IMG/VR virus record: IMGVR_UViG_3300045146_000200
Span: 1 to 57,326 of that record
Direction: 5' to 3' (one strand)
Length of the DNA: 57,326 nt
Source: a virus
Shown one piece after another: positions 16,611 to 56,274 of the stretch. A model generated the notes under the pieces. The model searched no databases, was not told where the DNA came from, and was given only the letters and a program-made list of their open reading frames with translations. Position 1 is the first letter of the stretch. Each line of letters begins with the position of its first letter. The position numbers and the translations under genes were made by a program.

Positions 16611-16623
16611 GAAAGGGGCTCCC

Positions 16624-32615: not shown

Positions 32616-32625
32616 CAGGAGGACA

Positions 32626-32987: not shown

Positions 32988-32989
32988 TC

Positions 32990-33984: not shown

Positions 33985-33996
33985 GGAGGGAATAAC

Positions 33997-36345: not shown

Positions 36346-37116
36346 TCACGGGAATCGCAACTCACCTTGATTCGGGTCCTCGGCACTGGCCCTCTTATCG
36401 GCCAGCCACCAATCCCAGACATCCTGGGCTGTTGACCAGAAGTCCCAATGATCGCGGGTTTTCAACATATGCTCGAACGCGCGCAGGTAGAGCGCCTTGT
36501 ACCTTGGCCAACGCCGAAAGTCTTGCATGCGCTTTTCACGCGTGGCCATCGGGCATCCGATGCAACCAACTCGCTTCCAGCCTTGATCGTACAGGCAACA
36601 ATAGGGCAGATTGTGCTCGTGAATGTACTCCCACACGTCCTCGTTGGACCAGTCAAGGATGGGATGGACGAAGCGTTGGCTGTTGTCGCGATAGCAGACC
36701 TCCGCGATCTGCCGCTTTTTCCTGCGTGCGCTTTCCGCTGCCCGGATACCGGTTAGCACGGTTTCACCCTTGCCATATCGCTCTTTGAGTTCTTCACAAC
36801 AATACCTGGCGATCCTCGTCGGCGGCATGTGACGCTCTACGATCAATGTCCACATGGTTTTGGGCGGCCTATGGATGGTCACCTCGGGATGATGCTCCTT
36901 CACGAAGTGAACTACTTCGGGCGGGTCGATGCTCGTTAGGTAAAAGTGCGCGGCGAACTTGACGCCTGCGGACTTGGCCAGGTGCAGGAGTACAACCGAA
37001 TCTTTGCCCCCAGAGAACGCCAGGTGGTAACCTTCTGGCGGCTGGAAGGTCTGCATTCGCTCTATCGCCATGGCGACCCGGTCAATGGTGCCGAAGAGGG
37101 TAGGTTCGCGAAGCAT
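36346..37116 (-). CDS. PAPS-reductase-like protein (adenine nucleotide alpha-hydrolase fold)
   Basis: 256 residues with GGAGAAGTTCA before the ATG. The PP-loop SGGKDSVVLLHLAKSAG (~35-51) and VLTGIRAAESARRKKR (~115-130), then FVHPILDWSNEDVWEYI, are the CysH/PAPS-reductase pattern. Cysteines in YCCEELKER, YCCLYDQG and VGCIGCPM could hold an Fe-S cluster, as in APS-type or DndC-like proteins. Phage members are widespread with unclear roles; they may not reduce PAPS. The presence of an APS kinase in the same genome makes nucleotide-sulfate chemistry worth testing. The gene follows a terminator, so it has its own start or read-through. Confidence 0.82.
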   Translation of the reverse strand: MLREPTLFGTIDRVAMAIERMQTFQPPEGYHLAFSGGKDSVVLLHLAKSAGVKFAAHFYLTSIDPPEVVHFVKEHHPEVTIHRPPKTMWTLIVERHMPPTRIARYCCEELKERYGKGETVLTGIRAAESARRKKRQIAEVCYRDNSQRFVHPILDWSNEDVWEYIHEHNLPYCCLYDQGWKRVGCIGCPMATREKRMQDFRRWPRYKALYLRAFEHMLKTRDHWDFWSTAQDVWDWWLADKRASAEDPNQGELRFP

Positions 37117-38712: not shown

Positions 38713-39849
38713 TTATACCTTTCCCGCATCTGCTGCAAGGCCAGCAAGCCTTGGCCTGACGCACCTATCGAGAAATTCGTCAAAGTTCTGGTCGAGTACC
38801 TCCGCTTGAATGTCCTTTCGGCAGTTGTGGAGAGCCGCCGATGGGCTGAACTCAGGCCCGTCGTGCGCACAATAGGGGTCTGGAACGGCCTCTCCGTACA
38901 ACCGTTCCAGGCCTAACCGGGGGTCAACGACGCAACGCGGGTGAACCCACCCACCCCAGATGGTAAAGGTCGGCGTCCCGATGGCAAGCGATGCGGGGAG
39001 CATGTAGCATTGACTCGCCAACGTGAACGCCGAGATTCCTACGAGCCCAAGCATGGTGTAGAGTTCGACCTGCCCCGTGTCCCATCGGCAGTCGATGTTC
39101 TGTAGCTCCCCCTCCGGCCATTCCACCTGGGGCCTGTTGTTCCCTACCAGAATCCAGTGGAACTCCTTGTGCCTGTCAATGCACCGCTGAAGATACTCGT
39201 CCTTGCATGACCTGGCCGGGTTCTGCCACTCCGCACGGACTGTACCCTGCTTGATCAAGGCGATAGGCTTCCTGACTGTGCTCGTCACTTTCCGAGCCGC
39301 ATCCACCCACTCTGGCTTCAAGGGGAAGTGAAAGTCTACTTCCGCCCCCAGGGGCATCGCTCGTTCCAGCGCAGTCATGATCGTTTGGGACTCGTGCCGA
39401 TATGCCAGTTCGTAGTCTATGCTGACGCTGGCATAGTCCCTCGGGACCTCATTCCAGAGTTTGGTGTCTGCCGCCTCTGCCGCTTCCTTGCATGTCCGTA
39501 GATTCGTGTATGCCCTGACCGGGTGAATCTTCGGGCAGTCCCACCACATCTCCGGGTTACTGGTGTGGACCCAGACATCACCATATCGTTTCGAGATTTT
39601 CCGCACGATAGGCCGAGTCCAGAACTGGTCCCCGAATCCGAGATACCCGGTAATCAGGATCGGGCGCTTCCCGTCGTACATGTCCACCCACGACCCCTTG
39701 TTCCTGGCCTTTGCCACCTTATGAGAGAATTGGAACCCGCAGTCAAGGCAGGTAAAGACCGCGCGTTCCACCTCGAATCGTCGTTTCAAGCGGAGATGCC
39801 CGCATTCCACCGTTCTGGCTACATCAGGCACTTCAATCTTGAGATCCAT
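38713..39849 (-). CDS. GT9-like glycosyltransferase with N-terminal zinc ribbon
   Basis: 378 residues. The first ~45 residues carry C/H ligands (ECGHLRLKRRF, FTCLDCGFQF), an added zinc ribbon. The body has PILITGYLGFGDQFWTRPIVRKISKRYG (GT9-type start) and the late FTLASQCYMLPASLAIGTPTFTIWGGW, as in heptosyltransferase-like proteins. Its location next to virion and lysis genes is unusual for a glycan enzyme. It may modify host LPS or a virion part. Family call moderate; donor unknown. Confidence 0.62.
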   Translation of the reverse strand: MDLKIEVPDVARTVECGHLRLKRRFEVERAVFTCLDCGFQFSHKVAKARNKGSWVDMYDGKRPILITGYLGFGDQFWTRPIVRKISKRYGDVWVHTSNPEMWWDCPKIHPVRAYTNLRTCKEAAEAADTKLWNEVPRDYASVSIDYELAYRHESQTIMTALERAMPLGAEVDFHFPLKPEWVDAARKVTSTVRKPIALIKQGTVRAEWQNPARSCKDEYLQRCIDRHKEFHWILVGNNRPQVEWPEGELQNIDCRWDTGQVELYTMLGLVGISAFTLASQCYMLPASLAIGTPTFTIWGGWVHPRCVVDPRLGLERLYGEAVPDPYCAHDGPEFSPSAALHNCRKDIQAEVLDQNFDEFLDRCVRPRLAGLAADAGKV

Positions 39850-42800
39850 ACGTATGCTCCCCTTGCCCGGCCATCGACTGCGCTAGAGCCTGCCTCTCAC
39901 GCAATTCCGCGAGGCGACTCATCTGCGCTCTAAGTGACGGTATACGCATCCGTCTCCGTGGTTCAGGCACGCCGAGCATGCGCCGGAACATCACAGGGTC
40001 AATCTCCTTGTTCTTCTCCGCTGCGTCGGTAATCATTCGGTTCAGATCGTCCGGCTGGATGGTGTATCGCATGATGAGGGGCAGGATGGCCTCCTGCGCC
40101 TTCTCCGGCCCAAGTTGTGTCGCCAAGGGCTTCAGAATCCCCTTGGCTTGCTCATGCAGCTTCGTAGCCTCGTCCTGCGCTGACCTCGCTATCTCCTCCG
40201 GCGTTACGTCTGGCCATCGCTGCATCTGCTCGATGATGTGCCTGCGAGCACTGTTGTAGTTCTGTTCCAGCATGTCCTGAGCCTCGAATACAACGTCCTT
40301 CGGGTGCAGGTAGGTCTGGCGCATGAATCGTGACTTGGCCGACTTCTCGATTTCCTTCAGGCCATCGACGACAGCCGAGTTCATCTTCGCCTGCTCCTCG
40401 GGGGGCAGCTTAGAGATCATCGTCTTCCACCCGGAGTTCACGAGCGCGGTCCATACGTTTCTTGGAGCGATGGCATTGATCGCGTAGTCCAGCCGGGCGG
40501 GGGACATACTCAACCCCTTCCCCATGTCCACCGCCATCTGTCTCGTGATACCCGGGATTACCTCGTCTTCAGGCCGAACGCTCGCCCCACGCCAGATCGT
40601 ATCGTCCTGCCAGAAGTTGTGATTGAGGGTATACCCAAGGACAGACTCCATCACCGGAGGCATGATGGCGCTCATGTCCGTCATCGGGAGAGAGGTCTTC
40701 AAAGACCTAATGCTCTCCATGAATGGCCTTGGAGGGGCCTGTCCAGTCAGGGACTTCCTTGCAAGGGATTCCCACAGGGATTTCACCGGAGCAATAGTCT
40801 GGTCGAGAGGGATGCGGAAGTAGGTGTAGCGTTTCTCCCCGGTCTTCGGGTCAATCTCGAAGAACGGCGTCGTGATGATCCAGTTGTCCGTCTTCTCATT
40901 CTCCGGGATGGCGTCGTAGCACTCCCGGTTGTAGATCAGGTTGGCGATGGTGAGACCCGCCGCCACCGTCCCCACGTTCGCCAGTTTCCAAGCCAGCATA
41001 CCCGGGCTTTTCTCTGCCGCTGTCACCCAGCCTCTTGCGCCCTGCATAGACGCATTGACGTAGGGTATGCCCACAGCCGAGGCGAACTTCGTCCACGTGC
41101 CGCCCTTCGAGAAGTCGATGTATCCCCGAGCCTGGTCCGCTGCCATGACAGGCCCTAACCCGAGTTTCATGCCCCGATTGAATGCGGCCAACCGAGTCCA
41201 GTTCTCCGACACCTCGCCAAGCCAGCCCATGGCACGAGCAATTCCGTCCAACTCCGGTGTGGCGAAGTGAGGCCGGGATTCCTTGGACAAGTACTCCGAC
41301 GCCGCTCCATGGCGTATGAACTCCTTCGCTCGCGCCGTAGGCTTGCGTCTGGCAATGCTGATGGCATCGCCCAAAGTCTCAGCCATGTCCCTGCCAAGCT
41401 CGGCAAAGCCAGCGATGGGTAGGACCTTCGATACGCTCCCGCTGTTGTACAGGTTCGTCACACCCCAGACGTGGAACACGTCTCGCATCACGTTCGCTAT
41501 AGCGAAGACTGGGTTCACCCCGGTGGCCATGGCTTTCAGGAGCTTGCTGCCAGTCCATATCTGCAACTGGTTAGATAGTTCCGGGGCAATGCTTGGCGGG
41601 ATCTCTCCCCACAGTTTGGCGAACTCCATCGGGACGACGACTCCAACTGTCTGCGGGGCGTCTACCATCGCGCCCTTGACCTTCTTCTGCCCGACGATCC
41701 TCGCCGTGATAATGGCTTCGTCCTTGCGCAGAGCCTGCTTCGGTTCCAGATACGTCAGCCCATCCGCCCGTGCCACCCTTCGGAATCCCCCACGATACTC
41801 GCGCATCCCAGGGATACTTGGGTTCGCTTGAACCAACTTGACCAGTTCCAGATTCGCTTCGTTCCGCGCTATGCGGTGCTCAAGACCCAAGTTCGCCCCG
41901 AGGAGTAACCGTTCCGAGTCCGTCTCTGCCGCTGACAGGCTTCCCTTATCCAGGTACTTGAAGAAGCTCGCCCCGGTGTCCAGCGCCTGCCTGTTCGAGT
42001 CGAGGATACTGTTGTCCCTGAACAGGCCGCCGAGGTCATCCAGGTACTTCTCCGGCTGATAGAACGGGATCTTGAGGAGCTTGTCCCGAAACTCCGTAGT
42101 CTCGATACCTGCCTCAGCCGCACGGTACAAGAGGCGGTCGTACCCAGCCTTCAGTGCACCGACTCGCTGCGGAAAATCACCATACCCAGGAATGGGCGCG
42201 GACATCTCCTCCGCGAGGATCTTCTGTGCCGTCTCCAAGGTCTGTTCCTGAACTTTCTTGCCAGGAGGCCGAAACGCCCCTATTGGCCTTTGGAAGTCCT
42301 CGGCAGCCAGTCGTCGTTCCAGAGCTTGCACTTTCTCCGTGTATGCCCGTTCCAGCCGCTTCACCTGCCTGTTGCGGAAAGCAGCAATCACTTGCTGAGC
42401 CTTGTCCATCCGGTCGAGTTGCATCGCCTTCAGGACGTTCAGGCGTTCAATCACGTCTTCGCCCTTGGCGATAGGCTTGGCGAAGAGGGTGATTGTGGAC
42501 TGGAGGTCACGCTTGAGTTGCTGATGCTGCTTAGGCGTGAGTCCCTGTTCGGCCATCTCCAGGACCATTTTGATTTCCTTCATGGCCTTGGTGGCTTCGG
42601 CCTTGACCGCAGAGTCCAGTGCCATATCCGCACGCAAGCCCACCCCGGCAGCAATGCGATTGATCGCGTCCACGCCACGGCTCGCGATCTGTGCTCGCTG
42701 GTCCATCTCGTGATTGACTCTGTCCTTTGCCGCGGTGAACTTCTTTTCGAGGATGTCGAGTTCCTTCTTCGCGTCGGCTACCTGCCTGCCCATCGCTCGT

Positions 42801-44137
42801 TCCGTCGCGGCCATGTCACTTTGAGCCATGGCGACATTCTCAAGGGCTTCCTTCGCCCTTCCTTCGAGAGGCCGCACATACCCCATCTTCTGAAGGGCCT
42901 CTCCCATGCCCGGTATCTTCCAGAGATGCCTCGTCCACCCATGGCCGAATACCATGTCCTTGAGAGGCTCCACCTCGGAGTATGCCCGGGCGTTGCTTCC
43001 GGCCATGAGGTTGTGCTTAGCCCGTACCGCGGCCATCTTCTCGCGCCCGTAGAGGTCCTCCATACTACGCCACATGCTCGATTCTTCATCGAGCACGCCA
43101 CGTTCAAGCCAGCCCGGTATGATCGGGGAAGGCTCACCAGGAGTTGGCTCAATGAGAGGCTCGCCACGCTCGAATTGCCCCGCTGCCTGCCGATACGTCG
43201 CCCCCACGTCCGGGTCCTGGTAGATCATCTTCATCAGGCGCATGCGGTCCATTGCCGCCGTGGCTTTACCGGATTCCTCTGCCCTACGAACGTGCTGAAT
43301 CAGTTCGTTGTAGAAGCGCCCCTTCTCTGCCCTGCCCATGTGCGCTCGTGGGCTGATTGCCGCAAGGCCAACGTCGAGAGCCGTCCCCATCGGCGAGATC
43401 CATTCATCGGCAGGCGCGCCTTGAACTGCCCCAAGCCCGGCTTGGACGCCCAGAGATACGCCCGCACCACCAAGTGCGGCCGCGCCAGCACGCTTGGCCT
43501 CCTCTCCGAGTGCCGCCTGATAAGCTGCTGGCCCTGCACGTTTCGCCCAGTCCAGATTCGATAGACTTCGGCCAATGCTCCGTGCTGCCATGGGCACGCT
43601 TGGTATCGCCGTCCCGGCCATAGCGGTATATGGATATTGCTGTTCGCTGGCAATGAGATTCTGCACCCATCGGCCAACGACGCCTGTGCTCTTCGCCGCT
43701 TCCCCCTTCAGCTTCTCTGCCGCCCACCCGCCAACCAATGCCCCACCAAGACCTACTGCACCGGAAAGAAGCGCGCCACCTACTCCCCCCCGAGGCTTCT
43801 TGCCCTTCTTCGCTGCGCTCTCTGCAATGCGCTGAAGGATACGAAGGGCGGTGGTAGACCCAAGCAGCGCGCCGGTGCCTGTTGCCGCCCCCCCAATGAG
43901 GGCTTTCGTTCGGCTTGTGTCCGCGATCTGTTCGGGCTCGACTGGCTTGTCGGTGTACCCGTAGAGGTATCTGCGAAGGACATCATGCTCGTCCCGGCGC
44001 TGGTTCTGTGCTGCCGCAAGGCCGTCTTCGAGGAAGGTCGTAGGCTGGTCCATGATCGGCATGAACGTAGTCTGGCCGTAGTCGGGGTTAAACCCGAACA
44101 TCGCTTCATCGAAGAAGGTTGGCTGATTGATAGCCAT
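39833..44137 (-). CDS. Large polyvalent virion protein (LPD38-type), probable ejected internal protein
   Basis: 1434 residues. The N-terminal ~170 residues have Gly/Ala-rich amphipathic stretches (KALIGGAATGTGALLGST, GGALLSGAVGLGGALVGGWAA) that could span or insert in membranes. Coiled coils follow (~430-620, for example EKFTAAKDRVNHEMDQR). Residues ~865-1090 (MATGVNPVFAIANVMRDVFHVW ... FASAVGIPYVNASMQGARGW) match the large polyvalent protein-associated domain seen in phage internal proteins. Such proteins travel in the head and are ejected into the cell. It overlaps the GT9-like gene by 17 bases. Individual enzymatic domains were not identified. Confidence 0.78.
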   Translation of the reverse strand: MAINQPTFFDEAMFGFNPDYGQTTFMPIMDQPTTFLEDGLAAAQNQRRDEHDVLRRYLYGYTDKPVEPEQIADTSRTKALIGGAATGTGALLGSTTALRILQRIAESAAKKGKKPRGGVGGALLSGAVGLGGALVGGWAAEKLKGEAAKSTGVVGRWVQNLIASEQQYPYTAMAGTAIPSVPMAARSIGRSLSNLDWAKRAGPAAYQAALGEEAKRAGAAALGGAGVSLGVQAGLGAVQGAPADEWISPMGTALDVGLAAISPRAHMGRAEKGRFYNELIQHVRRAEESGKATAAMDRMRLMKMIYQDPDVGATYRQAAGQFERGEPLIEPTPGEPSPIIPGWLERGVLDEESSMWRSMEDLYGREKMAAVRAKHNLMAGSNARAYSEVEPLKDMVFGHGWTRHLWKIPGMGEALQKMGYVRPLEGRAKEALENVAMAQSDMAATERAMGRQVADAKKELDILEKKFTAAKDRVNHEMDQRAQIASRGVDAINRIAAGVGLRADMALDSAVKAEATKAMKEIKMVLEMAEQGLTPKQHQQLKRDLQSTITLFAKPIAKGEDVIERLNVLKAMQLDRMDKAQQVIAAFRNRQVKRLERAYTEKVQALERRLAAEDFQRPIGAFRPPGKKVQEQTLETAQKILAEEMSAPIPGYGDFPQRVGALKAGYDRLLYRAAEAGIETTEFRDKLLKIPFYQPEKYLDDLGGLFRDNSILDSNRQALDTGASFFKYLDKGSLSAAETDSERLLLGANLGLEHRIARNEANLELVKLVQANPSIPGMREYRGGFRRVARADGLTYLEPKQALRKDEAIITARIVGQKKVKGAMVDAPQTVGVVVPMEFAKLWGEIPPSIAPELSNQLQIWTGSKLLKAMATGVNPVFAIANVMRDVFHVWGVTNLYNSGSVSKVLPIAGFAELGRDMAETLGDAISIARRKPTARAKEFIRHGAASEYLSKESRPHFATPELDGIARAMGWLGEVSENWTRLAAFNRGMKLGLGPVMAADQARGYIDFSKGGTWTKFASAVGIPYVNASMQGARGWVTAAEKSPGMLAWKLANVGTVAAGLTIANLIYNRECYDAIPENEKTDNWIITTPFFEIDPKTGEKRYTYFRIPLDQTIAPVKSLWESLARKSLTGQAPPRPFMESIRSLKTSLPMTDMSAIMPPVMESVLGYTLNHNFWQDDTIWRGASVRPEDEVIPGITRQMAVDMGKGLSMSPARLDYAINAIAPRNVWTALVNSGWKTMISKLPPEEQAKMNSAVVDGLKEIEKSAKSRFMRQTYLHPKDVVFEAQDMLEQNYNSARRHIIEQMQRWPDVTPEEIARSAQDEATKLHEQAKGILKPLATQLGPEKAQEAILPLIMRYTIQPDDLNRMITDAAEKNKEIDPVMFRRMLGVPEPRRRMRIPSLRAQMSRLAELRERQALAQSMAGQGEHTYGSQD

Positions 44138-44140
44138 GGA

Positions 44141-47100
44141 TTACTTTCCCTTGACTTTCTTCGCCAGATCGGGGTAGTCGGCGAGGACCTCGGCAGGGAC
44201 TGGCTTGCCAGAAGAGATGGCGCGCTCCACGACAACTTTATGCCCTGGATATTTTTCCCACGCACCTATTGGCTTTATCAACGCTTCGTCGTCCCCCCCA
44301 AATCCGATGACTTTGCCTTTTCCAAAGTACCACGGACGAGTAGTGTCCACCATCGAACCTGCGGTTGGAGTAATATAGACACTTACTCCTAATTCATATT
44401 TGCCTTCGCGGGCGTTGTATGATCTGCCCGATTTTGGTAGATCGCCAGTCCTGTAAAATGTCCTCACGTCTCCAATTTTAACAATTCTTTGCTGACCAGA
44501 ATAAGCCACCGCAGCATTAGCTTGATCTTTAGTTAATTCCCACGGCTCCTTAGCTGTGACCAGTGGCGCATAGGCTTGATCTCGCAAACTTCTTAAATTA
44601 TTCACTCTGTCTACGAGAGGTTTCATGCGGCGAATTGCATCTGCTGGTGCCGTCATACCACCCGTTGGGACTCCTTCAATAACCATTCTCGCCACCCCAT
44701 TGTGGTAGCTGATATTTGTGGCATTATCTAAGGCTGCTTCCGCCTCACTTAATAATAGTGACTTCCGATATGTCTGTATCCACGGTTCTTTGGCTTGCCC
44801 TACCGCTTCCTCAAAAGGGGCTTTCGGCGGCACCTCACCCGCCTTCTTCATACTAAACGCATGCCGCTTGGTGCCCTCCATTTGAGCCGCCATACCCTCA
44901 TCCCATGGAATGGTCGTCTTGTCGAACGGTATCTTCTCCGCATCCACTGGTCGTCTGCCGCGGAACCAGTCCGTCATGCTGCCGCTAATTTCAACCGTCC
45001 GTTTCTGATCTCCGGTGATAACCGTGTTAATTCGATTCGCGATGATCGCCTTAGCTTCTTCTGGTGAATGAGCATAGACGGTCATATTAACCTGCATTTT
45101 CTGTGGTGCTAGAGGCTTGCCAGTTGCTTCGCTAGCCCATGTTACGGTTTTTTGACCCACGAATACGTACTTGTGAACGTTGCCACCAAGGTAGTCCGCC
45201 TCTGTCGGTACGACTGGCTGAACCTCCCAAGGGGATACGGATGTTCCGGCAGTCGCCTTCTTCAGCCCTGCCTGGGCCTTCGCTGACGTGAGGAATTTCA
45301 ACTCAAGGTCGTCCAGAGCCTTCCCCTTGTCCAACTTCTGTAGCATGGCATCGAGCTTCTTCGTAGCTCCCTTCGCCTGTTTCGTCGTCTGCGTCCACCA
45401 GAAGTCAAGGGCGTCCACAATGTCCTGGCGAATAGGAGATGTCGGACTCATACCGATCTTCGCGGTTTTAGCCGCACGGTCGTAGATTGAGTACCAGTCT
45501 TCGGCGTCCATTCCTGGATTCAAGTTGGTTTTCTGAATCCACCTACTCCAGCTTTCTTGCCGTCCAATACCAGCCTTAGCCATAGTCTCGGCTTCTGCGA
45601 ACGGGTCAATTCGTGGTCGAACTGGCACAGCAGGTGGCTGGGTAACCGATGCTTGTGCAGATTTAATCCCCGCATCTTTTACCTCAACAACATTGAGATC
45701 ATCAGGTCGGAGCCTGAATATAGTATCCACGCCATCTGGCTGCACCTCGATTGCATCCCCGCCATTGAGTACGCGAGTTACTGTGCCTTTGTACCCCGGC
45801 CTCGCCTTCCCCTTCGGTAGAACTTCCACTTTGGTTCCAAACCAGCGGAACTCGTCGTCCGCAGTTGCTCCCTTCCACGGCTGGGTTGTTCCGATTGTCA
45901 TCGTGCTGGCAGGTTGTCCGGCAGACCCTTCTACAAGCGTTTCAGCGCCTGTCTTAGGGGGGGGTACTCCCTCCCCTGTAGGTTGAGTCGTTTTCGGGGC
46001 CACCTTCGTTCCTGGGCCTGTTTCTGGCGCTTTAGACGTGTTCCTCAGACCTTCTCGCAGCTTCTCGGCCATCTCCGGTCCTGTCACCGGCCTTGGACCG
46101 ACCGGAGCCTGATACTCGAATGGCAGTTCAGGCATCGCCGCACCCGGAGTTGCAGGCATTCCGAACCCCTCCGGCGTAAGTGGCCTGCCAGTAACGGTTT
46201 CGATTGCCGCCTTCGCTACAGAAGCCGCAGCTTCAGGGCCTGCCTTGGCCTCGACGGCAGCGATAACTGCTTCTGCCTGAGCAACTTGGCCGCGAGAGAC
46301 CAAGGTGGCAACGTCATCGGCTACTTTGGCCATCTGAGGGCCAAACGCATTCACGTCTCTGGCCGCCCTGAAAATCTCCTCTGGTGCAGGGGCAGCCTCT
46401 GGGGGAACTACTCCCCTTTCACCACCCATGAATTCAGGTGGGACAGTCGGTCGGGCAATCCTCATAGCCTCAGTCATTACTTTTGTAGCGTAATCAGGAC
46501 CATACCTTCTAGATAAAGACGCATAGATAGTTTCCTGCGCCAACGTGTTTTCTGCCCGGATAGCTCGTACAGCAGGTTCTAACAGATCGGGTGGAATAGC
46601 AATTGATCCACCTCGAAAAAAGCCACTAATTGTGTCGGCGGCACTGGAACCCGCATGCGCGGTCTTCGGCGGTGCTGTCGGCGGGGGCATGGGGCCAGGC
46701 CCTGCCGGAGGTGGACTCGGTGGGACTCCTGGGGGTACAGGCGGGGGCGTTGGCGGGGGCATGGGGCCAGGACCTGCCGGAGGTGGACTCGGCGGTACTC
46801 CTGGGGGTGCGGGCGGGGGCGTTGGGCCTGCCCCTGGCGGCGGTGGATTAGCTCCAGAACTTCCCGTCAAGTCCTCCCAGACGTACACGGGTGGACGCGT
46901 TCCGATTGGCTGTGGAGCGCCAGTCCCACCGCCTGCCATCATCTCCTCGTAGGTGGCAGGACCTACGCCTGGGGGGGCAGTGTATGGCGTGATTCCCCTG
47001 AACCGCCCGATCATCCTGCGGAATGCGTCCCGAACCGGGCTCAAAGCCTTCCCTGCCGCCCAACCAACTGGGGCCAGTGCAATGTTCGCACCAGCATACT

Positions 47101-48991
47101 CCAGCATGGTCCCGGGCATTTCTCGAATCGCAGGAGCTTCCCCCGTAGTCGCCAACTGGCCAAGACCCCTCTTGACTTCCAGCGGCACAGCGAGAGCCGC
47201 GCCTCCTGCGGCAAGCCCCAAGCCCTTGTTCAGCCCCGTCCCTATCAGCCCCTTGCCTGCGATCTTCTCGCCGACGCCGCCTGCACCTGAAATCTTCTCT
47301 GAGATTTCCAAGAATCGTTTGATTCCAGCCGCAACCTTGGGATAAGCCTTCGCGAGTTTGACGCTGTTAGCCAAGCCCTTCAGGATTCCCGCTCCTGTGG
47401 CCACGGCAGCCAGTTCGCCTTCCATGTACCCCATGTAGTACATGGTGCTTTCGATGGCGTCTCTTGGCGACGGCAAGTCCTTCGCAAACTCCGCGCCATC
47501 CAAGCCGTAGGCGGCGAGGACGCCCTTCGCGAAAGCGCCGGTCATCGTGTTAGCGACTACTCCCTTTCCGCGCGCCTTCTCATACCACCGGAACTTGGTC
47601 GTGTCCCACATGCGTTTTCGGACAGCCTCTTGTGCCGCTCCGAGGATGCCGAACGTCGTCATAATCTGTGCCGCGGCGTATCGGTTAGCTACATCCTCTG
47701 CCGTCTCCTCGTCCATCCCGGCAAGCGTATTGGCCTGCTTCGCCACGTTGCGAAGTTTCTCGGCAATGGCAGGACGCTGCTGCGCAAGTTGCGTGATTGT
47801 CGCCCCGAGCTTATCGGCCATGGCGTTGATCGTGCCTTCGTCTGCCTTGTCTATGCCTCGCAGTTGGGATACGGCCGACTCCAAGGTGGCCTTCATGGTC
47901 GGATCCATGGAGATCGGCTTCAGGTCGTCCAAGTTCTGGCCCAAGGCAGAGAAGTAGTTCTCCATGCCCGGGATCGCCTTCAAGGTCTTCGGGTCGAACT
48001 GTTCTCGCTCGGTGATGGCGTCAATGAACGGCTGCATCACCTTGGCCTTGCCTTGGCCGGTAGGAGCCGCGGCAGCCTGTTCCCTCAGCCGATTCACGAA
48101 GGTCATAGGGATTCTCTGCGTCCCACCCCGTGCGCTGGGCAGCGTGATTGCGCCAGACTCCCCTTGGTTTCTTGGTGTGAGAAAGTGGTCAATGAATTGG
48201 TCCAGCGCGGCCATGGCTCGCATCTGTCCCTGCGGAGTAGCAGCAGCCTCCGGGCCCATAGCTCCGAGGAAGCTCGGGTAGAGTTCCTTAGCCAGTTGCG
48301 CTCGCTGGTGCCGTTCTCGCTCCGGTCCACGCATGAGGGCTTCGATAGGAATGGCTTGGCCGAGGTCAATAGCCATCGCCAGGTCGTCTCTTCCAGCCTG
48401 CCGCATAGCGTCGGATGCCTGTCGTCTCAGTCGGCGCAACTCGCTCTTGTAGGCTGCTTCTTCCCTTTCCTCCGCGGTCGGCGGATATTCCGGCTGTGGA
48501 GGCGCACCTCCAGCCCGAATACCAGCCGCCGCCTGAAGGTGGTATCCCCGCTCGGCCTCGGTCTTATCGGGCATGTTCGCCGCGTACTCGTGCCATCTCG
48601 CGGCGGCCTCTCTCTTCGCGGCTTCGCGCTGTTCCTTCTCCTGCCGGTTCTTCGCGGCTTCGGCAGACTGTCTCAACTGCTCCTGCTGGACTCGGATATT
48701 CTCCTGGTGTTGCCGGATTGTCTCTTTGAGTTGCTGCCTGCGCAGTTCCTGCTCCGCCTTATTGACCGCGTCCTGGCGCTTCTGTTCCTCACGTCGGTAC
48801 TTCTCAGCCTCGACGGCCTGTTGACGCTGGAACTTGGTTTGCTGCTCCGCCTGCATGCGGTCGTAGGCTTCCTGTTCCAGTCGCTTCCTGGTCAACTGGT
48901 AGTCCACGTACCGCTGCGCAACGGGCACGCGCGCCCAGTTCCCCACCGGGACATTCATCGCTGAGAAACCGCCTTCAGCACCGTATGCCAT
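44141..48991 (-). CDS. Giant modular virion protein with coiled coil and Pro-rich repeats
   Basis: 1616 residues. Residues ~35-190 are a very long charged coiled coil (EQQTKFQRQQAVEAEKYRRE). The next ~450 residues are helical with hydrophobic Gly-rich patches (KGLIGTGLNKGLGLAAGGAA). Residues ~735-800 are Pro/Gly repeats (GPGPMPPPTPPP) from a 72-bp duplication. The C-terminal ~700 residues are mosaic and end in a more AT-rich part (44.2-45.0 kb) with SYNAREGKYELGVSVYITP. It is probably the partner of the 1434-residue polyvalent protein, packaged and ejected. No enzymatic motif is certain. Confidence 0.75.
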   Translation of the reverse strand: MAYGAEGGFSAMNVPVGNWARVPVAQRYVDYQLTRKRLEQEAYDRMQAEQQTKFQRQQAVEAEKYRREEQKRQDAVNKAEQELRRQQLKETIRQHQENIRVQQEQLRQSAEAAKNRQEKEQREAAKREAAARWHEYAANMPDKTEAERGYHLQAAAGIRAGGAPPQPEYPPTAEEREEAAYKSELRRLRRQASDAMRQAGRDDLAMAIDLGQAIPIEALMRGPERERHQRAQLAKELYPSFLGAMGPEAAATPQGQMRAMAALDQFIDHFLTPRNQGESGAITLPSARGGTQRIPMTFVNRLREQAAAAPTGQGKAKVMQPFIDAITEREQFDPKTLKAIPGMENYFSALGQNLDDLKPISMDPTMKATLESAVSQLRGIDKADEGTINAMADKLGATITQLAQQRPAIAEKLRNVAKQANTLAGMDEETAEDVANRYAAAQIMTTFGILGAAQEAVRKRMWDTTKFRWYEKARGKGVVANTMTGAFAKGVLAAYGLDGAEFAKDLPSPRDAIESTMYYMGYMEGELAAVATGAGILKGLANSVKLAKAYPKVAAGIKRFLEISEKISGAGGVGEKIAGKGLIGTGLNKGLGLAAGGAALAVPLEVKRGLGQLATTGEAPAIREMPGTMLEYAGANIALAPVGWAAGKALSPVRDAFRRMIGRFRGITPYTAPPGVGPATYEEMMAGGGTGAPQPIGTRPPVYVWEDLTGSSGANPPPPGAGPTPPPAPPGVPPSPPPAGPGPMPPPTPPPVPPGVPPSPPPAGPGPMPPPTAPPKTAHAGSSAADTISGFFRGGSIAIPPDLLEPAVRAIRAENTLAQETIYASLSRRYGPDYATKVMTEAMRIARPTVPPEFMGGERGVVPPEAAPAPEEIFRAARDVNAFGPQMAKVADDVATLVSRGQVAQAEAVIAAVEAKAGPEAAASVAKAAIETVTGRPLTPEGFGMPATPGAAMPELPFEYQAPVGPRPVTGPEMAEKLREGLRNTSKAPETGPGTKVAPKTTQPTGEGVPPPKTGAETLVEGSAGQPASTMTIGTTQPWKGATADDEFRWFGTKVEVLPKGKARPGYKGTVTRVLNGGDAIEVQPDGVDTIFRLRPDDLNVVEVKDAGIKSAQASVTQPPAVPVRPRIDPFAEAETMAKAGIGRQESWSRWIQKTNLNPGMDAEDWYSIYDRAAKTAKIGMSPTSPIRQDIVDALDFWWTQTTKQAKGATKKLDAMLQKLDKGKALDDLELKFLTSAKAQAGLKKATAGTSVSPWEVQPVVPTEADYLGGNVHKYVFVGQKTVTWASEATGKPLAPQKMQVNMTVYAHSPEEAKAIIANRINTVITGDQKRTVEISGSMTDWFRGRRPVDAEKIPFDKTTIPWDEGMAAQMEGTKRHAFSMKKAGEVPPKAPFEEAVGQAKEPWIQTYRKSLLLSEAEAALDNATNISYHNGVARMVIEGVPTGGMTAPADAIRRMKPLVDRVNNLRSLRDQAYAPLVTAKEPWELTKDQANAAVAYSGQQRIVKIGDVRTFYRTGDLPKSGRSYNAREGKYELGVSVYITPTAGSMVDTTRPWYFGKGKVIGFGGDDEALIKPIGAWEKYPGHKVVVERAISSGKPVPAEVLADYPDLAKKVKGK
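46681..46824. repeat. Two 72-bp tandem copies coding a Pro-rich linker
   Basis: Copies at 46681-46752 and 46753-46824 differ by a few bases. They encode 24-residue units with GVPPSPPPAGPGPMPPP and sit between modules of the giant protein. Confidence 0.8.
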
Positions 48992-49008: not shown

Positions 49009-50262
49009 CTAAATGTTCCACCGTTTTCGCTGCGCAACAAAGTCACCACCCACGCCGTGCCATTCTGGGTTGGCTTGACGGGGTGGTGCCCCACCCTCTG
49101 GCTGTGCCCCGGAGGACATATACGGGGCCGTATACCCTTCGCTTTTACGCCCCCTTCGCCTGCTGTACCACGACATTGCCTGGCGGATCTTCTCCCTGCG
49201 CACTGGTGGCAAGCCTTGCGATTCCAGCCACGAGGACGCGCGAGTGAAGTAGTCCTGGTCCTCACGCTTGCGCCTCTCGGCCGCGGCCCTGTGCCGTCTG
49301 AGGCGAAGGCTGGTGTCGAGTTGCTCCTGTGTCGGAGCAAATGTCTGGCCCCTGCCTGCCTCTATCGGAGTGGGCCGATAAGTGTCAAAGCCAGTAGAGG
49401 GATCGTACTCACGGAACTGGCCGGGCGAGGTCTCGAATCGCCCCCTGCCAATGCTGCGCCAGCCTGGTACCCAACCAGGCATCGCAGATTCCTGCACCGA
49501 TCCGAGTGGCATTCCAGAGTACGCCAATGGCTCGCCCTGTGGGCGCATGCCCATGTATGGCATCGTCCCCATGGATTCCGGGGATGAAGTGAAGGGGAGC
49601 GCCTGGCCTCGTGGAGGTACGTCCCTTGGAAGATCCATCTCCCCGCCAGGCCCAGCGGCCATGTAGGGGACCTGAGGCCGATTGCCGAATTCAATCGTCT
49701 GCATGGGGTTCAGGAAGTCAGCAACGCCAGCTTTCAGCCCCGCCCAGAACGGCGATTCCATCTCCGATTGCGCCCGAGCGATCATCTGCGCACGTTGCCG
49801 AATGCCTCTAGCCAGGTCCGGCCTTCCGATGGAGTCCCAGTACCCAGCCTCGGAAAGCAACCTTTGTAGTTGAAGGCTCTGTTCCGGCTGACGCGCGGGC
49901 TGCGCCTGTTGTCCCCGCCCGTCTGCCATGGGGCCTACTTCGTCTCTCCATGATGGCGAGCCAGGGCTCGTCATTTGCCGTTGAACCGGCGCTACGGGCG
50001 TAGGGGTTACGTTCGGGTTTCCGAAGGCGTCGTACGCTATGTCGGCCCAGGCCTCGGGCCACTGCGATGCTGCCGTCTTGATGCCAGCCCACCATGGCGA
50101 TTCCATCTCGCGTCGTGCACGCTGGATCATCATTTGCCGTTGAACCGAGCCATAGTCCTCTGGATTCCATGCTGGGACACTAGGTACGATTTCTCCACTT
50201 GGCGGGTTCCAGTACGGCAACCCAGGAGGAGGAAGATTGTATCGAGCATATTGGCTCGGCAT
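49009..50262 (-). CDS. Hypothetical structural-type protein with internal duplication
   Basis: 417 residues from MPSQYARYNLPP, set by AAGGAG six bases upstream (an ATG 6 bases earlier would be too close). Pro/Gln/Tyr-rich N-terminal half, including two copies of R-A-x-x-E-M-E-S-P-x-W-A-G-x-K (RARREMESPWWAGIK and RAQSEMESPFWAGLK). The C-terminal part is basic (RRHRAAAERRKRED). Disordered, probably a virion or assembly protein. It lies between the 226-residue gene and the giant protein. Confidence 0.65.
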   Translation of the reverse strand: MPSQYARYNLPPPGLPYWNPPSGEIVPSVPAWNPEDYGSVQRQMMIQRARREMESPWWAGIKTAASQWPEAWADIAYDAFGNPNVTPTPVAPVQRQMTSPGSPSWRDEVGPMADGRGQQAQPARQPEQSLQLQRLLSEAGYWDSIGRPDLARGIRQRAQMIARAQSEMESPFWAGLKAGVADFLNPMQTIEFGNRPQVPYMAAGPGGEMDLPRDVPPRGQALPFTSSPESMGTMPYMGMRPQGEPLAYSGMPLGSVQESAMPGWVPGWRSIGRGRFETSPGQFREYDPSTGFDTYRPTPIEAGRGQTFAPTQEQLDTSLRLRRHRAAAERRKREDQDYFTRASSWLESQGLPPVRREKIRQAMSWYSRRRGRKSEGYTAPYMSSGAQPEGGAPPRQANPEWHGVGGDFVAQRKRWNI

Positions 50263-50272
50263 GGTCATCTCC

Positions 50273-50953
50273 TTAGTATGGGAACATAAGTCGCCGATTG
50301 ACAGCCTGTGCCGTCCCGTAGTTCGGAATGTACGGCATCGGCAGGTACTTCATCTGTCCGAGCACGTCCGCATACTGCTGTCTGTACCCTGCCCCCTGCC
50401 CGTACAATCCAGCCGCGGCCTGAATGTTCGCAAGCCTCTCCTGTTGCTGCCTCCTAGCTTCATCAAGCGAGACGTTCTCGAATGCCTGAGCCATCGGGTC
50501 CATCAGGTGCAACCTGCGATAGTCCATCGCCCCTTGTGCTGCCTGTCCTGAGCCAGCACCCGCGAATCCAAGACTCTGTCCGACAGAAGCCAAGTAGTCG
50601 CTCGGGTCGTACTGCGACGCGATAGCACTTCGAGCCCTGCCCATGAGTTGCGTGCCGTAGTCGCTTGGGGCTTGGTTCAGCAAGGAAAGTCCCTTCTGCA
50701 TGTAGGGCGCGTAGTTTGATATGTTGCCCTGCAACTGGGCGATCATCTTTCGCTGGTTCGACTGCGCTTGTTGCTGTGCCTTCCTGAGCGAGTCTTGGAC
50801 TTCCTGGATGTAGGTCTTCTTTGTGGGCTTATTCACAGTACCGAATGACCCGCCCCGTGAAACCTGGCCACCCCAGCCAGTCTCCAGGCCGCCTTGCCTC
50901 GGCTGCCTCTGAAGCGTCGGTTGTCGCCAGAGATCGTTCGGAAACCATGCCAT
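50273..50953 (-). CDS. Hypothetical virion protein
   Basis: 226 residues. Gln-rich helices (EVQDSLRKAQQQAQSNQRKMI), ASQYDPSDYLASVGQSLGFAGAG and an Ala/Gln-rich tail (QQQERLANIQAAAGLYGQGAGY), reminiscent of small internal virion or tail proteins of podoviruses. Position between tail and polyvalent genes supports a structural or ejected role. Not recognised by family. Confidence 0.68.
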   Translation of the reverse strand: MAWFPNDLWRQPTLQRQPRQGGLETGWGGQVSRGGSFGTVNKPTKKTYIQEVQDSLRKAQQQAQSNQRKMIAQLQGNISNYAPYMQKGLSLLNQAPSDYGTQLMGRARSAIASQYDPSDYLASVGQSLGFAGAGSGQAAQGAMDYRRLHLMDPMAQAFENVSLDEARRQQQERLANIQAAAGLYGQGAGYRQQYADVLGQMKYLPMPYIPNYGTAQAVNRRLMFPY

Positions 50954-50966
50954 AAGTCACCTCATC

Positions 50967-52082: not shown

Positions 52083-52918
52083 TAGATGCTCCTCACATAA
52101 TCCCAGACGTTCGCCAGCGCAGCGTTTTTTTGAAGGACCTGCGCCTGCGTGCCGCCTTCGGGTAAAGATACGCTCGGCCAGTTATTGATAAGTGCCTTCT
52201 TGTGCGCGGCTCCTGCAACATCATAGATCAGGGCGTAGTCCGCGGTTGACGGCACTTTTGCCGCCAATCCATTCACGTCCGCCCTGAGCCGCAACGTCTC
52301 GTCACCGCCTGGAGCCAACACATCAGCTTGAACCCCTTCGGTAGCTGACATCTTGTTTTCGAGGTAATCAGCCGTGGTGTCATCCGCGCTCACCTTCACC
52401 GTCGTCCCACCACCACTGCCGCCTTCCTTGCCGACGATGTAAGCTATCGCTTTCCTCGTCACTGGGTCTCGATACCCGGCCACAATGACTATGTCTCCAA
52501 CTGCCGGGCTCGTCCCCATGGGGTCCTCTGCCGTTACCGTCTTACTCCCCCTCAAATCCCCGGCCTGATTGCACCTCTGCACGACATAAGGGCCAGCGCC
52601 GGAAAGGACCTTGCACATGTACACCCCAAGCGGGATTTCCTTCGCCTCACGTCCCGGCCTTGGAGCTTGGATGATGTTGATCGTCCATGACCCAGGATCA
52701 ACGACGATCTTGTCCTTGTCATCATTCGGGTATGGACTCGTCGGGCCAAGCTGGATGTAGCTCCCACCTATTGCAGGCCACTGAGGGAAACTGGGAAGGT
52801 CCCCGGTCAGTCCGGTCAACTGGTAGTTCAACAGGTTCTGCTGATTGATTGACCCTGCCCGGTCATTGGGCTTGAAGCAGAGACTCGGTATGGCTTGGGA
52901 TGGCACGCCATTAGGCAT
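52082..52918 (-). CDS. Tail fibre-like structural protein
   Basis: 278 residues, MPNGVPSQAIPS..., GGGAGGATGGACA upstream. The middle has VKVSADDTTADYLENK and GDETLRLRADVNGL, a motif often seen in phage tail and fibre proteins; the N-terminal part is strand-rich. An earlier in-frame ATG (52984) has no ribosome site. Host-contact or tail role inferred; the exact part is unknown. Confidence 0.62.
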   Translation of the reverse strand: MPNGVPSQAIPSLCFKPNDRAGSINQQNLLNYQLTGLTGDLPSFPQWPAIGGSYIQLGPTSPYPNDDKDKIVVDPGSWTINIIQAPRPGREAKEIPLGVYMCKVLSGAGPYVVQRCNQAGDLRGSKTVTAEDPMGTSPAVGDIVIVAGYRDPVTRKAIAYIVGKEGGSGGGTTVKVSADDTTADYLENKMSATEGVQADVLAPGGDETLRLRADVNGLAAKVPSTADYALIYDVAGAAHKKALINNWPSVSLPEGGTQAQVLQKNAALANVWDYVRSI

Positions 52919-55043
52919 TGTCCATCCTCCCTGCCCCGAGCACGTCGAGGCCAAGTTCAAGGCTGATGATCTGTTTCCCGCCATTCACGGATCGGAATGC
53001 CATCTGAAGCGCGAAGTCATATCCCGCTGCGCTAGCATTGTCCAGATTCGCAATCACGTCCTCGCTCGATAGGTCCGCTGTCGTTGTCACCACGGCACTC
53101 CCACTTCCGTCCGCGTACATGTTGATGTCGGCGTTCTTGAGCGTTGCTCCTTCAGCCGCGCTTATGTCCCTCGTGCGGATCCTGAGTTGCCTCGCCTGCT
53201 TCGTTACCTGGTCCGGGTTGGCGATCACCTGACCAAGCACTTGTGGATCGAGCCGCCCCGTCTTGATCTTCGTTTCGATACTGCCAATGGCATAGGTGTC
53301 CCCTGCCGCTGGCGTGAATGTAGGCCAAGCTGCTACGGTAATCTGCGTCCCTGTGTTGGCCGTGATGACGGCCTCCTGAGTCGTCGTGCCGTCTGTAGCG
53401 TCCTTCACCCAGATGGTGCAACCGATCAAGCCTTCCCCGGTCGTGTAGAATGCCGCCGCACCGTCCGTCAGGGTCGTCGCTGCTCCTGCCGTAGCTGTGC
53501 CGGTCATCGTGCCCGAGCCCGTATGCCTGTCTACGTACCCATTGTCTGGCTTGAAGAACCACCCGTTGTAGTCTCGGCTCGTGATGAGGAAGGTCTTCTT
53601 GTTCGAGAAGTTCTGCCGCCAATACCCGGCGCAATCGAACCCGAACGTGTACTTGCTCCACGGCGCTCCTGGCATACCGTAGTTCCACACGAGGGTCTTA
53701 TCGTTCCCCGTGAGGCCAGCCGTACTCATGTAGCTGAACCATATCTGTCGCCTGTCGCGCCAGTGCCATGCCCGGACTTCCTTGCCCCAGTTTCCGGCCA
53801 CCGTGCCATCCGGGTTTCCAATGGCATCCCACGTCCCCTGCGCGGGGAACACGCCATCGTCATCGGCAATGCGCTGAATCTGATTCACGTCGTAGGAGAC
53901 AGGGCCAGCCTGCCCACCCATGACCGCAAACTGTTCCATCTGTGCCAGCGCGTATGCCCACCCGCATCCCTGCTCGCTACTCACGGTCTGGATCTGATAC
54001 GAGATCCCGGCGTCTGTTACCTGAGTCGTCAGGTGAATGATGGTGCTCTGCTTGACGAGAATGATCTGGTTGAAGGCGACGTAGGCTGCGAGGATCGGCT
54101 CGCCATCCCCCGTTTCGAATTCGAGGTAATTGGAGCTTGGGACTTCCTCCGGCTTCAGGGCATTCGAGTAGTAGACGGTCAAGTACCCAGACCCACTCGG
54201 CTGGCAGATGTAGTAGGCCACCCCATCCTTGGCGATGATGAACCTCGCCTTCGGGGGTTGGCCTCCCTCGACGAGTTGATCCCCGAGGGAGTAATCCGCG
54301 ACGTTCGTGGTGTACGTGGTCTCAGTGTTGTTGATCGCCCCGTCGTAGTAGTACGGGGCAGTCCCGCTTCCATCCGTCCTGTAGATGTACCGCTTCGTCA
54401 CGCGCGGGTTGGTACTCACCGTGACGCCGGTAAGTTGAATCTGTTGATCCGTTGCGGTGACGGTATTACTCGCGGCACTCGCAGCGCCAATCACGTTGGC
54501 ATTGCCGTCTACGAAAACGTAGACAAACTTGTATGTGCCATTCAGTAAACCTGCCGCGCCAGTTGCTCCGACGCACGCTGCGGCTGGAGCTTCAACGCCG
54601 ACCCTCTGTGCATTCCCAGTCCCGCCCCAACTCCATGGGTGCATGTCCCCGTTTGTCGCGATGATCCTGTTGCGAATGCGAATGAAACTGTACGGGTATC
54701 CTAGCGTCCCTGCCGTCAGGTTGCTATCCCACGTTACTGGCGTAGCTACTCCGCTAGCCACGTCATACAGGATCTCGCTACCGCCCGATGGCAGGCCGAC
54801 GAAGATGTCTTTGTAGACCCCAACCGCTGTAGCGAAGTGGTCGAATCCGAGGACCCTGAGTGGAGTCCCGGCGCTCTTAAACCTGCTCGTGTTCCACTTC
54901 TGTATCCCACGTCTCGTCGCGCCGCGCCGATACCTGCTGAAGTCGATGTTCTGGCATACCTGCAACTGCGTAGGCTGGATCTCCGTGCCCTCGATGGCAT
55001 CATTCAGCCCACCCACACAGGATATCGGTACCCGAACATACAC
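52911..55043 (-). CDS. Tail nozzle/stabilisation protein (T7 gp12 / P22 gp10-like)
   Basis: 710 residues, typical of podovirus tail tubular B proteins. A repeat-rich beta-propeller pattern is evident: RVPISCVGGLNDAIEGTEI at the start, GLPSGGSEILYDVASGV, YIYRTDGSGTAPYYYDG, EQFAVMGGQAGPVSYDVNQI, with many aromatic-Gly turns. It follows the gp11-like adaptor gene. It would form the nozzle of the short tail, the DNA exit channel. Family assignment from gene order and propeller-like texture, not a specific signature. Confidence 0.75.
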   Translation of the reverse strand: MYVRVPISCVGGLNDAIEGTEIQPTQLQVCQNIDFSRYRRGATRRGIQKWNTSRFKSAGTPLRVLGFDHFATAVGVYKDIFVGLPSGGSEILYDVASGVATPVTWDSNLTAGTLGYPYSFIRIRNRIIATNGDMHPWSWGGTGNAQRVGVEAPAAACVGATGAAGLLNGTYKFVYVFVDGNANVIGAASAASNTVTATDQQIQLTGVTVSTNPRVTKRYIYRTDGSGTAPYYYDGAINNTETTYTTNVADYSLGDQLVEGGQPPKARFIIAKDGVAYYICQPSGSGYLTVYYSNALKPEEVPSSNYLEFETGDGEPILAAYVAFNQIILVKQSTIIHLTTQVTDAGISYQIQTVSSEQGCGWAYALAQMEQFAVMGGQAGPVSYDVNQIQRIADDDGVFPAQGTWDAIGNPDGTVAGNWGKEVRAWHWRDRRQIWFSYMSTAGLTGNDKTLVWNYGMPGAPWSKYTFGFDCAGYWRQNFSNKKTFLITSRDYNGWFFKPDNGYVDRHTGSGTMTGTATAGAATTLTDGAAAFYTTGEGLIGCTIWVKDATDGTTTQEAVITANTGTQITVAAWPTFTPAAGDTYAIGSIETKIKTGRLDPQVLGQVIANPDQVTKQARQLRIRTRDISAAEGATLKNADINMYADGSGSAVVTTTADLSSEDVIANLDNASAAGYDFALQMAFRSVNGGKQIISLELGLDVLGAGRMDNA

Positions 55044-55052
55044 GGCTCATTC

Positions 55053-55772
55053 CTAGTAGTCAGAGTCTCCCAGAATCGTCGAATATCCTTGAATCCCAGG
55101 GGCAATACCCGGGAAGCCAGCCACCGCGCCCTTCGCCCCATACAACACGGTAGTCTCCAAGGGCCATTCGTCGGAGTCCATGGCGTCCTTCAGCCCGGCC
55201 TGATAGATCCCCTGCCACGTGATCCCCAGCGCCTTGTTCTGGTCGCTACCCGAGGCATACATCCAGATTAAGCAGTTCAAGAGTAGCTCGTGCAGGATGT
55301 ACGGCATCTGCGGCGTGTCGGTCAGGGCGAGATCGGAGAGCCCCTTTATGAACTCGAATTCGACTTGATACACGCCATCCGGCACGGGGTAGATTTTCAT
55401 GACAATGGCGTTGTCTTCGTCCTTATCGAATCCGCTCGCGGAGTACATGGCCGGGAAGCCAGTCTTCCCGTCTGGATACCATACCGTAGCCTGTTCCTTT
55501 GACACGGATTCGAGGGTGACTGTATGGGCTTCGATTCTGACGTTGCTTAGGCTGTTCGGCCGCACCCAATACGTGCCATCACCGACGAGCGGGTACTGCC
55601 GCACCTTATTCTGCGTGCTGACTACCCCGGTCATCGCGAGCCAACTCCACGGCCTGATGTGCTCGATGTGGTGATACGCCCGGTTGAGGAAGACAAGGAG
55701 CTTCGTGTCTGTCCCTGTTCCGGGGATCGTCAGGATGGTCTTGGCTGCGGTGATGATCTCTTGTGCGGTCAT
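55053..55772 (-). CDS. Tail adaptor protein (T7 gp11-like)
   Basis: 239 residues. LLVFLNRAYHHIEHIRPWSWL (~24-44) and the strand-rich centre with VRQYPLVGDGTYWVRP resemble the gp11/tail tubular A family that joins portal to nozzle. HELLLNCLIWMYASGSDQNKAL in the last part fits the helical end. It precedes the nozzle gene, the normal podovirus order. Confidence 0.78.
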   Translation of the reverse strand: MTAQEIITAAKTILTIPGTGTDTKLLVFLNRAYHHIEHIRPWSWLAMTGVVSTQNKVRQYPLVGDGTYWVRPNSLSNVRIEAHTVTLESVSKEQATVWYPDGKTGFPAMYSASGFDKDEDNAIVMKIYPVPDGVYQVEFEFIKGLSDLALTDTPQMPYILHELLLNCLIWMYASGSDQNKALGITWQGIYQAGLKDAMDSDEWPLETTVLYGAKGAVAGFPGIAPGIQGYSTILGDSDY

Positions 55773-56263: not shown

Positions 56264-56274
56264 AATTGCTCCCT

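What the first reader, a model, noticed from the sequence alone, without database searches (positions are those of the whole stretch)
39833..48991. Two giant internal proteins with modular, partly foreign-looking ends
The 1434- and 1616-residue proteins dominate the virion region. The larger has a ~155-residue coiled coil, a 72-bp duplicated Pro-rich linker and a C-terminal part of lower GC than its neighbours (44.2-45.0 kb), suggesting module exchange. These are probably ejected into the host and may carry unknown early effector domains.
Basis: partly seen in the sequence, partly recalled or inferred. Interest (0 to 1): 0.6.

Follow-up and report, generated by a model that had tools for sequence, protein, structure and literature searches.

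The report
Podovirus ejection proteins with acquired cargo tail
Two very large neighbouring proteins of a short-tailed phage look like parts of the machinery that a virion fires into its host; one is the family's conserved big ejection protein, and the other carries a 900-residue, differently encoded tail ending in a so far uncatalogued module shared with other giant phage and plasmid proteins.

Summary
Both ORFs exist (1434 and 1616 aa, minus strand) at the end of a podovirus virion operon. The 1434-aa protein carries an extended LPD38 core (about 700 aa) found at the C-terminal end of giant proteins in about 100 viral loci. These sit directly after a small and a mid-sized gene: the T7 gp14-gp15-gp16 ejection order, explicit in Pelagibacter phage HTVC034P. 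In podovirus JC1 the equivalent three proteins were found in purified virions (PMC9144972). The 1616-aa protein is an orphan and a chimera: residues 1-708 have virion-typical codons, while residues 709-1616, starting at the Pro-rich linker, have far lower GC3 (corrected z -13.5 against -0.7). So the foreign-looking part is about 2.7 kb, not only 44.2-45.0 kb. Its last 130 residues form a module, KEPWxMT ... GKPVPxEVLAxYPDL, that brackets unrelated inserts in giant phage and plasmid proteins, some with LPD38, ART-PolyVal or ddrB-ParB domains. I found no Pfam model or paper for it. The coiled-coil claim failed a heptad test; no enzyme domain was found. Best reading: a gp14/15/16-like ejection system whose second giant has gained a polyvalent-type cargo tail. 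Packaging, ejection and cargo activity are inferred.

The parts
39833..44137 (-). P0002, 1434 aa: LPD38-core giant, gp16-position ejection protein
   Evidence: PF18857 LPD38 24.8 bits whole protein, 27.6 bits for residues 560-1434 against a cut-off of 27; phrog_9854 E 1.8e-8
40238..42460 (-). P0002 residues 560-1300: conserved core shared by LPD38 giants
   Evidence: alignments A3/A4, invariant ATG-NP, N, RD, PY..A..Q, DF..G; profile hits known podovirus giants at E 1e-33 to 1e-39
40469..40924 (-). P0002 residues 1072-1223: Pfam LPD38 stretch
44141..48991 (-). P0001, 1616 aa: chimeric giant, orphan
   Evidence: no relative
46868..48991 (-). P0001 residues 1-708: virion-typical codon use; candidate gp15-position body with charged helix at ~31-155
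   Evidence: z -0.7; EKRQ 55%
46622..46867 (-). P0001 residues 709-790: Pro-rich linker (45% Pro)
46668..46811 (-). 72-bp tandem duplication inside the linker
44144..46867 (-). P0001 residues 709-1616: codon-deviant C-terminal module (foreign-looking)
   Evidence: GC3 changepoint and z -13.5
44510..44551 (-). head motif KEPWELTKDQ... of the C-terminal bracket (residues 1481-1494)
44165..44242 (-). tail motif HKVVVERAISSGKPVPAEVLADYPDL of the bracket (residues 1584-1609)
   Evidence: AF2 pLDDT about 96
49009..50268 (-). P0004, 419 aa, Pro/Gln-rich, alternative gp15-position candidate
   Evidence: gene order only
50273..50953 (-). P0005, 226 aa, gp14-position (small ejection protein)
   Evidence: matches u2-family profiles at E 0.0024 and 0.0052, above shuffles
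52911..55043 (-). P0008, 710 aa, tail/nozzle-type protein
   Evidence: matches upstream u3/u4 tail families of LPD38 loci (E 3.5e-8 and 3.2e-4) and L045's homologue (2e-24)
55053..55772 (-). P0009, SU10-type adaptor
   Evidence: PF24175 E 4.3e-14

Best explanation
The two giants are the large components of a podovirus DNA-ejection apparatus. P0005 (226 aa), the N-terminal 708 residues of P0001, and P0002 stand where T7 gp14, gp15 and gp16 stand. P0002's C-terminal two thirds is the conserved core of an LPD38-type large ejection protein. P0001 is a chimera: a virion-typical body joined by a Pro-rich linker to a ~900-residue segment acquired from a different codon background. That segment ends in a two-part module (KEPWxMT / GKPVPxEVLAxYPDL) that polyvalent proteins use to frame variable inserts. 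Proposed mechanism: both proteins are packaged inside the head, leave through portal and nozzle ahead of or with the DNA, P0002 and the P0001 body build the conduit across the envelope, and the P0001 tail is carried along as cargo that acts in the newly infected cell. Shown here: gene order, the LPD38 core, chimeric codon use, the shared module. Inferred: packaging, ejection, conduit role, cargo activity.
For: LPD38 core. About 100 viral contigs with the core. Synteny: in 69 of 71 distinct loci both genes before the giant are on its strand (medians 289 and 385 aa, giant 1570 aa; gene maps). T7-like order by depositors' names in HTVC034P: tail tubular A, tubular B, acetyltransferase, internal virion protein B-like, 580 aa, 1229-aa LPD38 protein, tail fibre. 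VvAW1: DNA transfer protein, 295 aa, DarB-like giant. JC1 gp67 (196 aa), gp68 (510 aa) and LPD38-bearing gp69 (4515 aa, 51 peptides) are virion-associated by mass spectrometry (PMC9144972). The review PMC8954989 gives the same small, mid, large operon (181-240, 431-982 and 609-1337 aa) and mosaic domain swaps. Chimera. Module: 35 of 54 tails, found with a pattern for the tail alone, also have the head motif upstream; inserts mutually unrelated; module or its tail and LPD38 core in one ORF in L178, L170 and L163.
Against: No sequence match of P0001 residues 1-708 to any gp15-position protein, although that family is known to be matched mostly by size and synteny (PMC8954989). P0004 may be the gp15 equivalent instead. 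gp16 and gp14 homologues normally carry predicted membrane helices; LPD38 giants here do not (18% against 41% of shuffles), and P0002 has only two weak Gly/Ala-rich segments. AF2 of the core is of low confidence (pLDDT 64, pTM 0.43), with no significant fold match. No catalytic domain was found in P0001.
Confidence: 0.7

Rival explanations
1. P0001 is not an ejection-conduit part but an extra, free-standing polyvalent cargo protein inserted between the gp15 equivalent (P0004) and the gp16 equivalent (P0002); it is packaged and delivered, but forms no conduit.
For: P0004 (419 aa) fits the gp15-position size (median 385 aa); P0001 has no relative; its C-terminal module is polyvalent-like.
Against: P0001 residues 1-708 share the virion genes' codon use. 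Its N-terminal charged segment resembles u1 proteins more than P0004 does (maximum EKRQ 0.67 against 0.37; 27% of u1 reach 0.45, 0-2% of u3/u4), but this is weak.
Confidence: 0.3
2. The low-GC3 segment is not acquired; it reflects relaxed selection or local mutation bias in a fast-evolving, partly disordered C-terminus.
For: One other gene of the window (16549-17673) also has low GC3 (z -6.6), and P0001's tail has no homologue from which a donor could be named.
Against: Sharp changepoint at the linker, depression over ~900 codons in every sub-segment, and a module otherwise found in unrelated phages.
Confidence: 0.25
3. P0002 and P0001 are external tail proteins, or tape-measure-like structural proteins, and are not ejected.
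For: They lie in the tail end of the operon; the pieces are mostly helical.
Against: SU10-type adaptor and podovirus module; gp16 position before the tail fibre in HTVC034P; [quoted passage not shown]).
Confidence: 0.08

Closest known systems
LPD38 polyvalent giants (JC1 gp69, VvAW1 gp01, HTVC034P gp44)
   Same: P0002 shares the C-terminal core (HTVC034P gp44 by profile; JC1 gp69 by its published LPD38 annotation) and the place after a small and a mid-sized virion gene.
   Different: JC1 gp69 carries an N-terminal lytic-transglycosylase-like and DarB-like domains; P0002's N-terminus has no recognised domain, and the accessory segment sits in a separate gene.
T7 gp14/gp15/gp16 and P22 gp7/gp20/gp16 ejection proteins
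   Same: Operon order small, mid, large; sizes 226, 708 (body) and 1434 aa; mosaic domain fusion (PMC8954989).
   Different: No sequence similarity detected; no clear membrane helices; the mid-sized protein is extended by ~900 aa; one extra gene (P0004) in the operon.
Polyvalent proteins (Iyer, Burroughs, Aravind 2017, PMC5512222)
   Same: Giant late-operon proteins with LPD38 and mixed modules predicted to be packaged and delivered; the KEPW/DYPDL bracket occurs in giants with ART-PolyVal, ddrB-ParB and LPD38 and, mainly its tail half, in plasmid strawberry-notch and N6-methylase giants.
   Different: P0001 lacks any recognised polyvalent enzyme domain; the bracket module has no Pfam model.

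Membership tests
LPD38 (PF18857) large polyvalent proteins | Pfam LPD38 match | tested here: met
   27.6 bits, cut-off 27, for residues 560-1434; 24.8, below the cut-off, with the whole protein; 10 of 13 aligned members match, best 3.2e-14. Borderline for P0002 itself.
LPD38 (PF18857) large polyvalent proteins | extended ~700-aa core near the C-terminus of a giant late protein | tested here: met
gp16-type large ejection protein | position after small and mid-sized virion genes in the tail-distal part of the operon | tested here: met
   P0005 and P0008 matched to the syntenic families
gp16-type large ejection protein | predicted membrane-spanning segments | tested here: inconclusive
   P0002 has two weak hydrophobic Gly/Ala-rich stretches (KD 1.54, 1.38); the family as a whole is not enriched
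gp16-type large ejection protein | T7/N4 ejection-protein fold | tested here: inconclusive
   low-confidence model; T7 core proteins appear among many unrelated helical bundles at tied Z
gp16-type large ejection protein | present in the virion and ejected | not testable with these tools
   only by analogy: JC1 gp69 (PMC9144972)
Polyvalent protein (for P0001) | at least one recognised polyvalent effector or LPD domain | tested here: not met
   no Pfam, PHROG, NCBIfam or PADLOC domain; only the uncatalogued bracket module is shared, so P0001 is not filed as a member
Polyvalent protein (for P0001) | shares modules with polyvalent giants | tested here: met
   KEPW/DYPDL bracket
gp15-type ejection protein (for P0001 residues 1-708) | sequence similarity to gp15-position proteins | tested here: not met
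   the u1 families are themselves mutually diverse; P0001 is not filed as a member

The most novel reading that the evidence does not exclude
KEPWxMT ... GKPVPxEVLAxYPDL is an undescribed plug-in slot: one small helical domain split by a variable insert, used by phages and plasmids to load different cargo domains into proteins that enter a new host with the DNA. In this phage it has been grafted, with ~900 residues of foreign codon use, onto an ejection protein. If true, any ejected or conjugated giant could be searched for cargo simply by reading between the two motifs.
Probability: 0.35. Interest if true: 0.7.

Novelty: new variant of a known kind. Interest (0 to 1): 0.5.

Why it matters
It places LPD38, a domain of unknown function known only as 'polyvalent-protein associated', at the gp16 position of the ejection operon across many podoviruses. 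It also gives a two-motif handle, absent from Pfam, for locating cargo segments inside giant delivered proteins. Both make the question 'what do phages inject besides DNA?' directly searchable and testable.

Tried and rejected
Canonical coiled coil in P0001 31-155: heptad contrast not above shuffles. Membrane-helix enrichment of LPD38 giants: negative. Known enzyme domain in P0001 pieces: none. P0001 homologues: none in phage records, IMG/VR by peptide patterns, 40 LPD38-bearing records or neighbour ORFs; weak matches are low-complexity or helical. L001 is a spurious short match in an unrelated gene neighbourhood. Genome-contig scan with the core alignment gave two Flavobacteriales loci only. 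Fold searches for the core and for the bracket: no significant PDB match; T7 gp15 chains appear with Z 5.6-6.9 among unrelated bundles and are not counted as evidence. DUF433 resemblance of the tail motif (best E 0.026, 4 of 35 members) is too weak to claim. An ART-like look of the P0001 insert and of some other inserts is by eye only: Pfam's ART-PolyVal did not match any bracket insert, and the ART-PolyVal hit in L141 lies outside its insert. Papers: no text hit for the bracket motifs. Bcep22 records could not be fetched under two accession numbers, so JC1 gp69 was not compared directly.
Full report
What the window is. The window is a 57,326-bp virus record. L069, a contig 99.98% identical to it, joins both ends: terminase (890-2611) is followed on L069 by a 700-aa portal-position protein, a 301-aa protein and a 341-aa MCP-like protein, and then the window's right end (these names rest on gene order, not on family matches). 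The virion genes run leftwards on the minus strand: P0011, P0010, P0009 (SU10-type adaptor, PF24175 E 4.3e-14), P0008 (710 aa), P0007, P0006, P0005 (226 aa), P0004 (419 aa), P0001 (1616 aa), P0002 (1434 aa), then a glycosyltransferase-like gene P0003.

Check of the observation. Both giant ORFs and the 72-bp tandem duplication are real. The low-GC region at 44.0-45.1 kb is the lowest of the window. GC3 shows that the shift starts earlier: the best changepoint in P0001 is codon 709, where the Pro-rich linker begins (GC3 0.70 to 0.51; no permutation of 500 reaches it). With the virion genes' codon preferences as reference and amino-acid composition corrected for, residues 1-708 give z -0.7 and residues 709-1616 give z -13.5, and every sub-segment of the second part is depressed. 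Among 20 other genes tested, only one reaches z below -4 (16549-17673, z -6.6). The 'coiled coil' is a charged helix without heptad signal.

P0002. Pfam LPD38 matches weakly (24.8 bits whole protein, 27.6 for residues 560-1434, cut-off 27). tblastn finds Desulfofustis, Cellulophaga and Maribacter phage giants. An alignment of these led to 63 loci in IMG/VR, and a second alignment to 65, partly the same contigs. The conserved part is ~700 residues at the C-terminal end of proteins of mostly 1,200-3,600 aa with variable N-termini. A profile of this core hits giants of cultured phages (Aeromonas phiARM81mr 4e-39, E. coli PTXU04 3e-37, Bacillus Pascal 6e-36, Pelagibacter HTVC034P 3e-33), and a tblastn with one member returns 51 phage records, among them Pelagibacter, Bacillus, Vibrio and Escherichia phages.

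Position. In 69 of 71 distinct loci the two genes before the LPD38 giant are on the same strand, with median sizes 289 and 385 aa. HTVC034P shows the T7-like order by its depositors' names: MCP, tail tubular A, tail tubular B, acetyltransferase, internal virion protein B-like (158 aa; phrog_418 internal virion protein), 580 aa, 1229-aa LPD38 protein, tail fibre. VvAW1 has a DNA transfer protein, 295 aa, and the 3,640-aa giant. In JC1, gp67 (196 aa), gp68 (510 aa) and gp69 (4,515 aa, LPD38 at 4195-4401) are all reported as virion-associated, gp69 with 51 unique peptides from CsCl-purified virions (PMC9144972). [quoted passage not shown]). In the window P0005 matches the small-gene families of the closest relatives (E 0.0024 and 0.0052, above shuffles) and P0008 the tail families (3.5e-8). 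P0002 therefore stands in the gp16 position; P0001 or P0004 stands in the gp15 position. Upstream neighbours longer than 700 aa are rare (1 of 69), so a 1,616-aa protein there is unusual, and removing the codon-deviant part leaves 708 aa.

P0001's tail. No database match exists for P0001. A degenerate DNA pattern for its last motif (GKPVPAEVLADYP) was run over IMG/VR: 52 contigs, mostly in large ORFs of up to 4,420 aa. A second motif that was not part of the pattern, KEPW[EQ]MT, lies 37-162 residues upstream in most of them (35 of 54 tails), and a His-x3-[VI]-x2-A[LIV] helix precedes the tail. P0001 has both at a distance of 114 residues. Inserts between the motifs are mutually unrelated except for one near-identical pair of contigs and one weak pair, and have lower GC3 than their flanks (mean difference -0.078, Wilcoxon P 0.004, n 22, including that near-identical pair). 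AF2 with short-insert members as alignment gives high confidence to the head (about 85) and tail (about 96) and low confidence to the insert (below 50). Pfam has no model for the bracket. Host proteins carry LPD38, ART-PolyVal, ddrB-ParB, RadC, NUDIX or SLT domains; in L178, L170 and L163 the bracket or its tail and the LPD38 core are in one polypeptide, bracket first, the same order as P0001-P0002. Plasmid giants annotated as strawberry-notch or N6-methylase proteins have partial matches, mainly to the tail.

Mechanism. Shown: gene order, LPD38 core, chimeric codon use, shared bracket. From established knowledge: podovirus ejection proteins are packaged in the head, pass through the portal and form a trans-envelope conduit (PMC8954989); polyvalent proteins are predicted to be delivered with DNA (PMC5512222). 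Inferred: P0002 and the P0001 body are the large conduit components, and the P0001 tail is delivered cargo. The activity of that cargo is not known; the bracket may serve as a landing site for inserts or a processing signal, and neither was tested.

Limits. The core model is of low confidence and no fold match is significant. Membrane segments expected of gp16 and gp14 are not enriched. P0001 residues 1-708 match no gp15-position protein. The tail-motif invariance is partly due to the search pattern; the head motif and the His are independent of it.

Noticed in passing
window ends 1-2901 and 50762-57326; L069: L069 (99.98% identical) shows that the window lacks ~5.5 kb holding portal-, scaffold- and MCP-position genes; the record is incomplete, and terminase and portal are adjacent.
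   Followed up: yes
16549-17673 (+): 374-aa replication-type protein with low GC3 (z -6.6) and an 11-bp tandem repeat array (16992-17063): a second codon-deviant gene.
   Followed up: no
38713-39849 (-): 378-aa heptosyltransferase-like protein (phrog_6804) after the giants; similar genes sit near head-tail adaptor genes in Pseudomonas phages such as phi1 and PP9W2. Several further sugar/methyltransferase-like genes lie at 4117-5824, 9002-9733 and 31749-35882.
   Followed up: partly
49009-50268 (-), P0004: Two internal copies of a motif QRxxMIxRAxxEMESP(W/F)WAG(I/L)KxxxA, about 110 residues apart, in a Pro/Gln-rich protein.
   Followed up: no
L004/L049 (Cellulophaga phi46:3) and L062: The LPD38 giant is split into two ORFs (1439 + 626 aa; 1735 + 445 aa, the second cut by the locus end), so gene fission occurs in this family.
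   Followed up: partly
22275-22413: 42-bp repeat (3.3 copies) inside a DNA adenine methylase-like gene (21811-22911).
   Followed up: no
H49, Methanosarcina virus MetMV 36868-37020: The only phage-collection hit to the bracket module (34.6% over 52 aa, E 2e-3) is in an archaeal virus.
   Followed up: no
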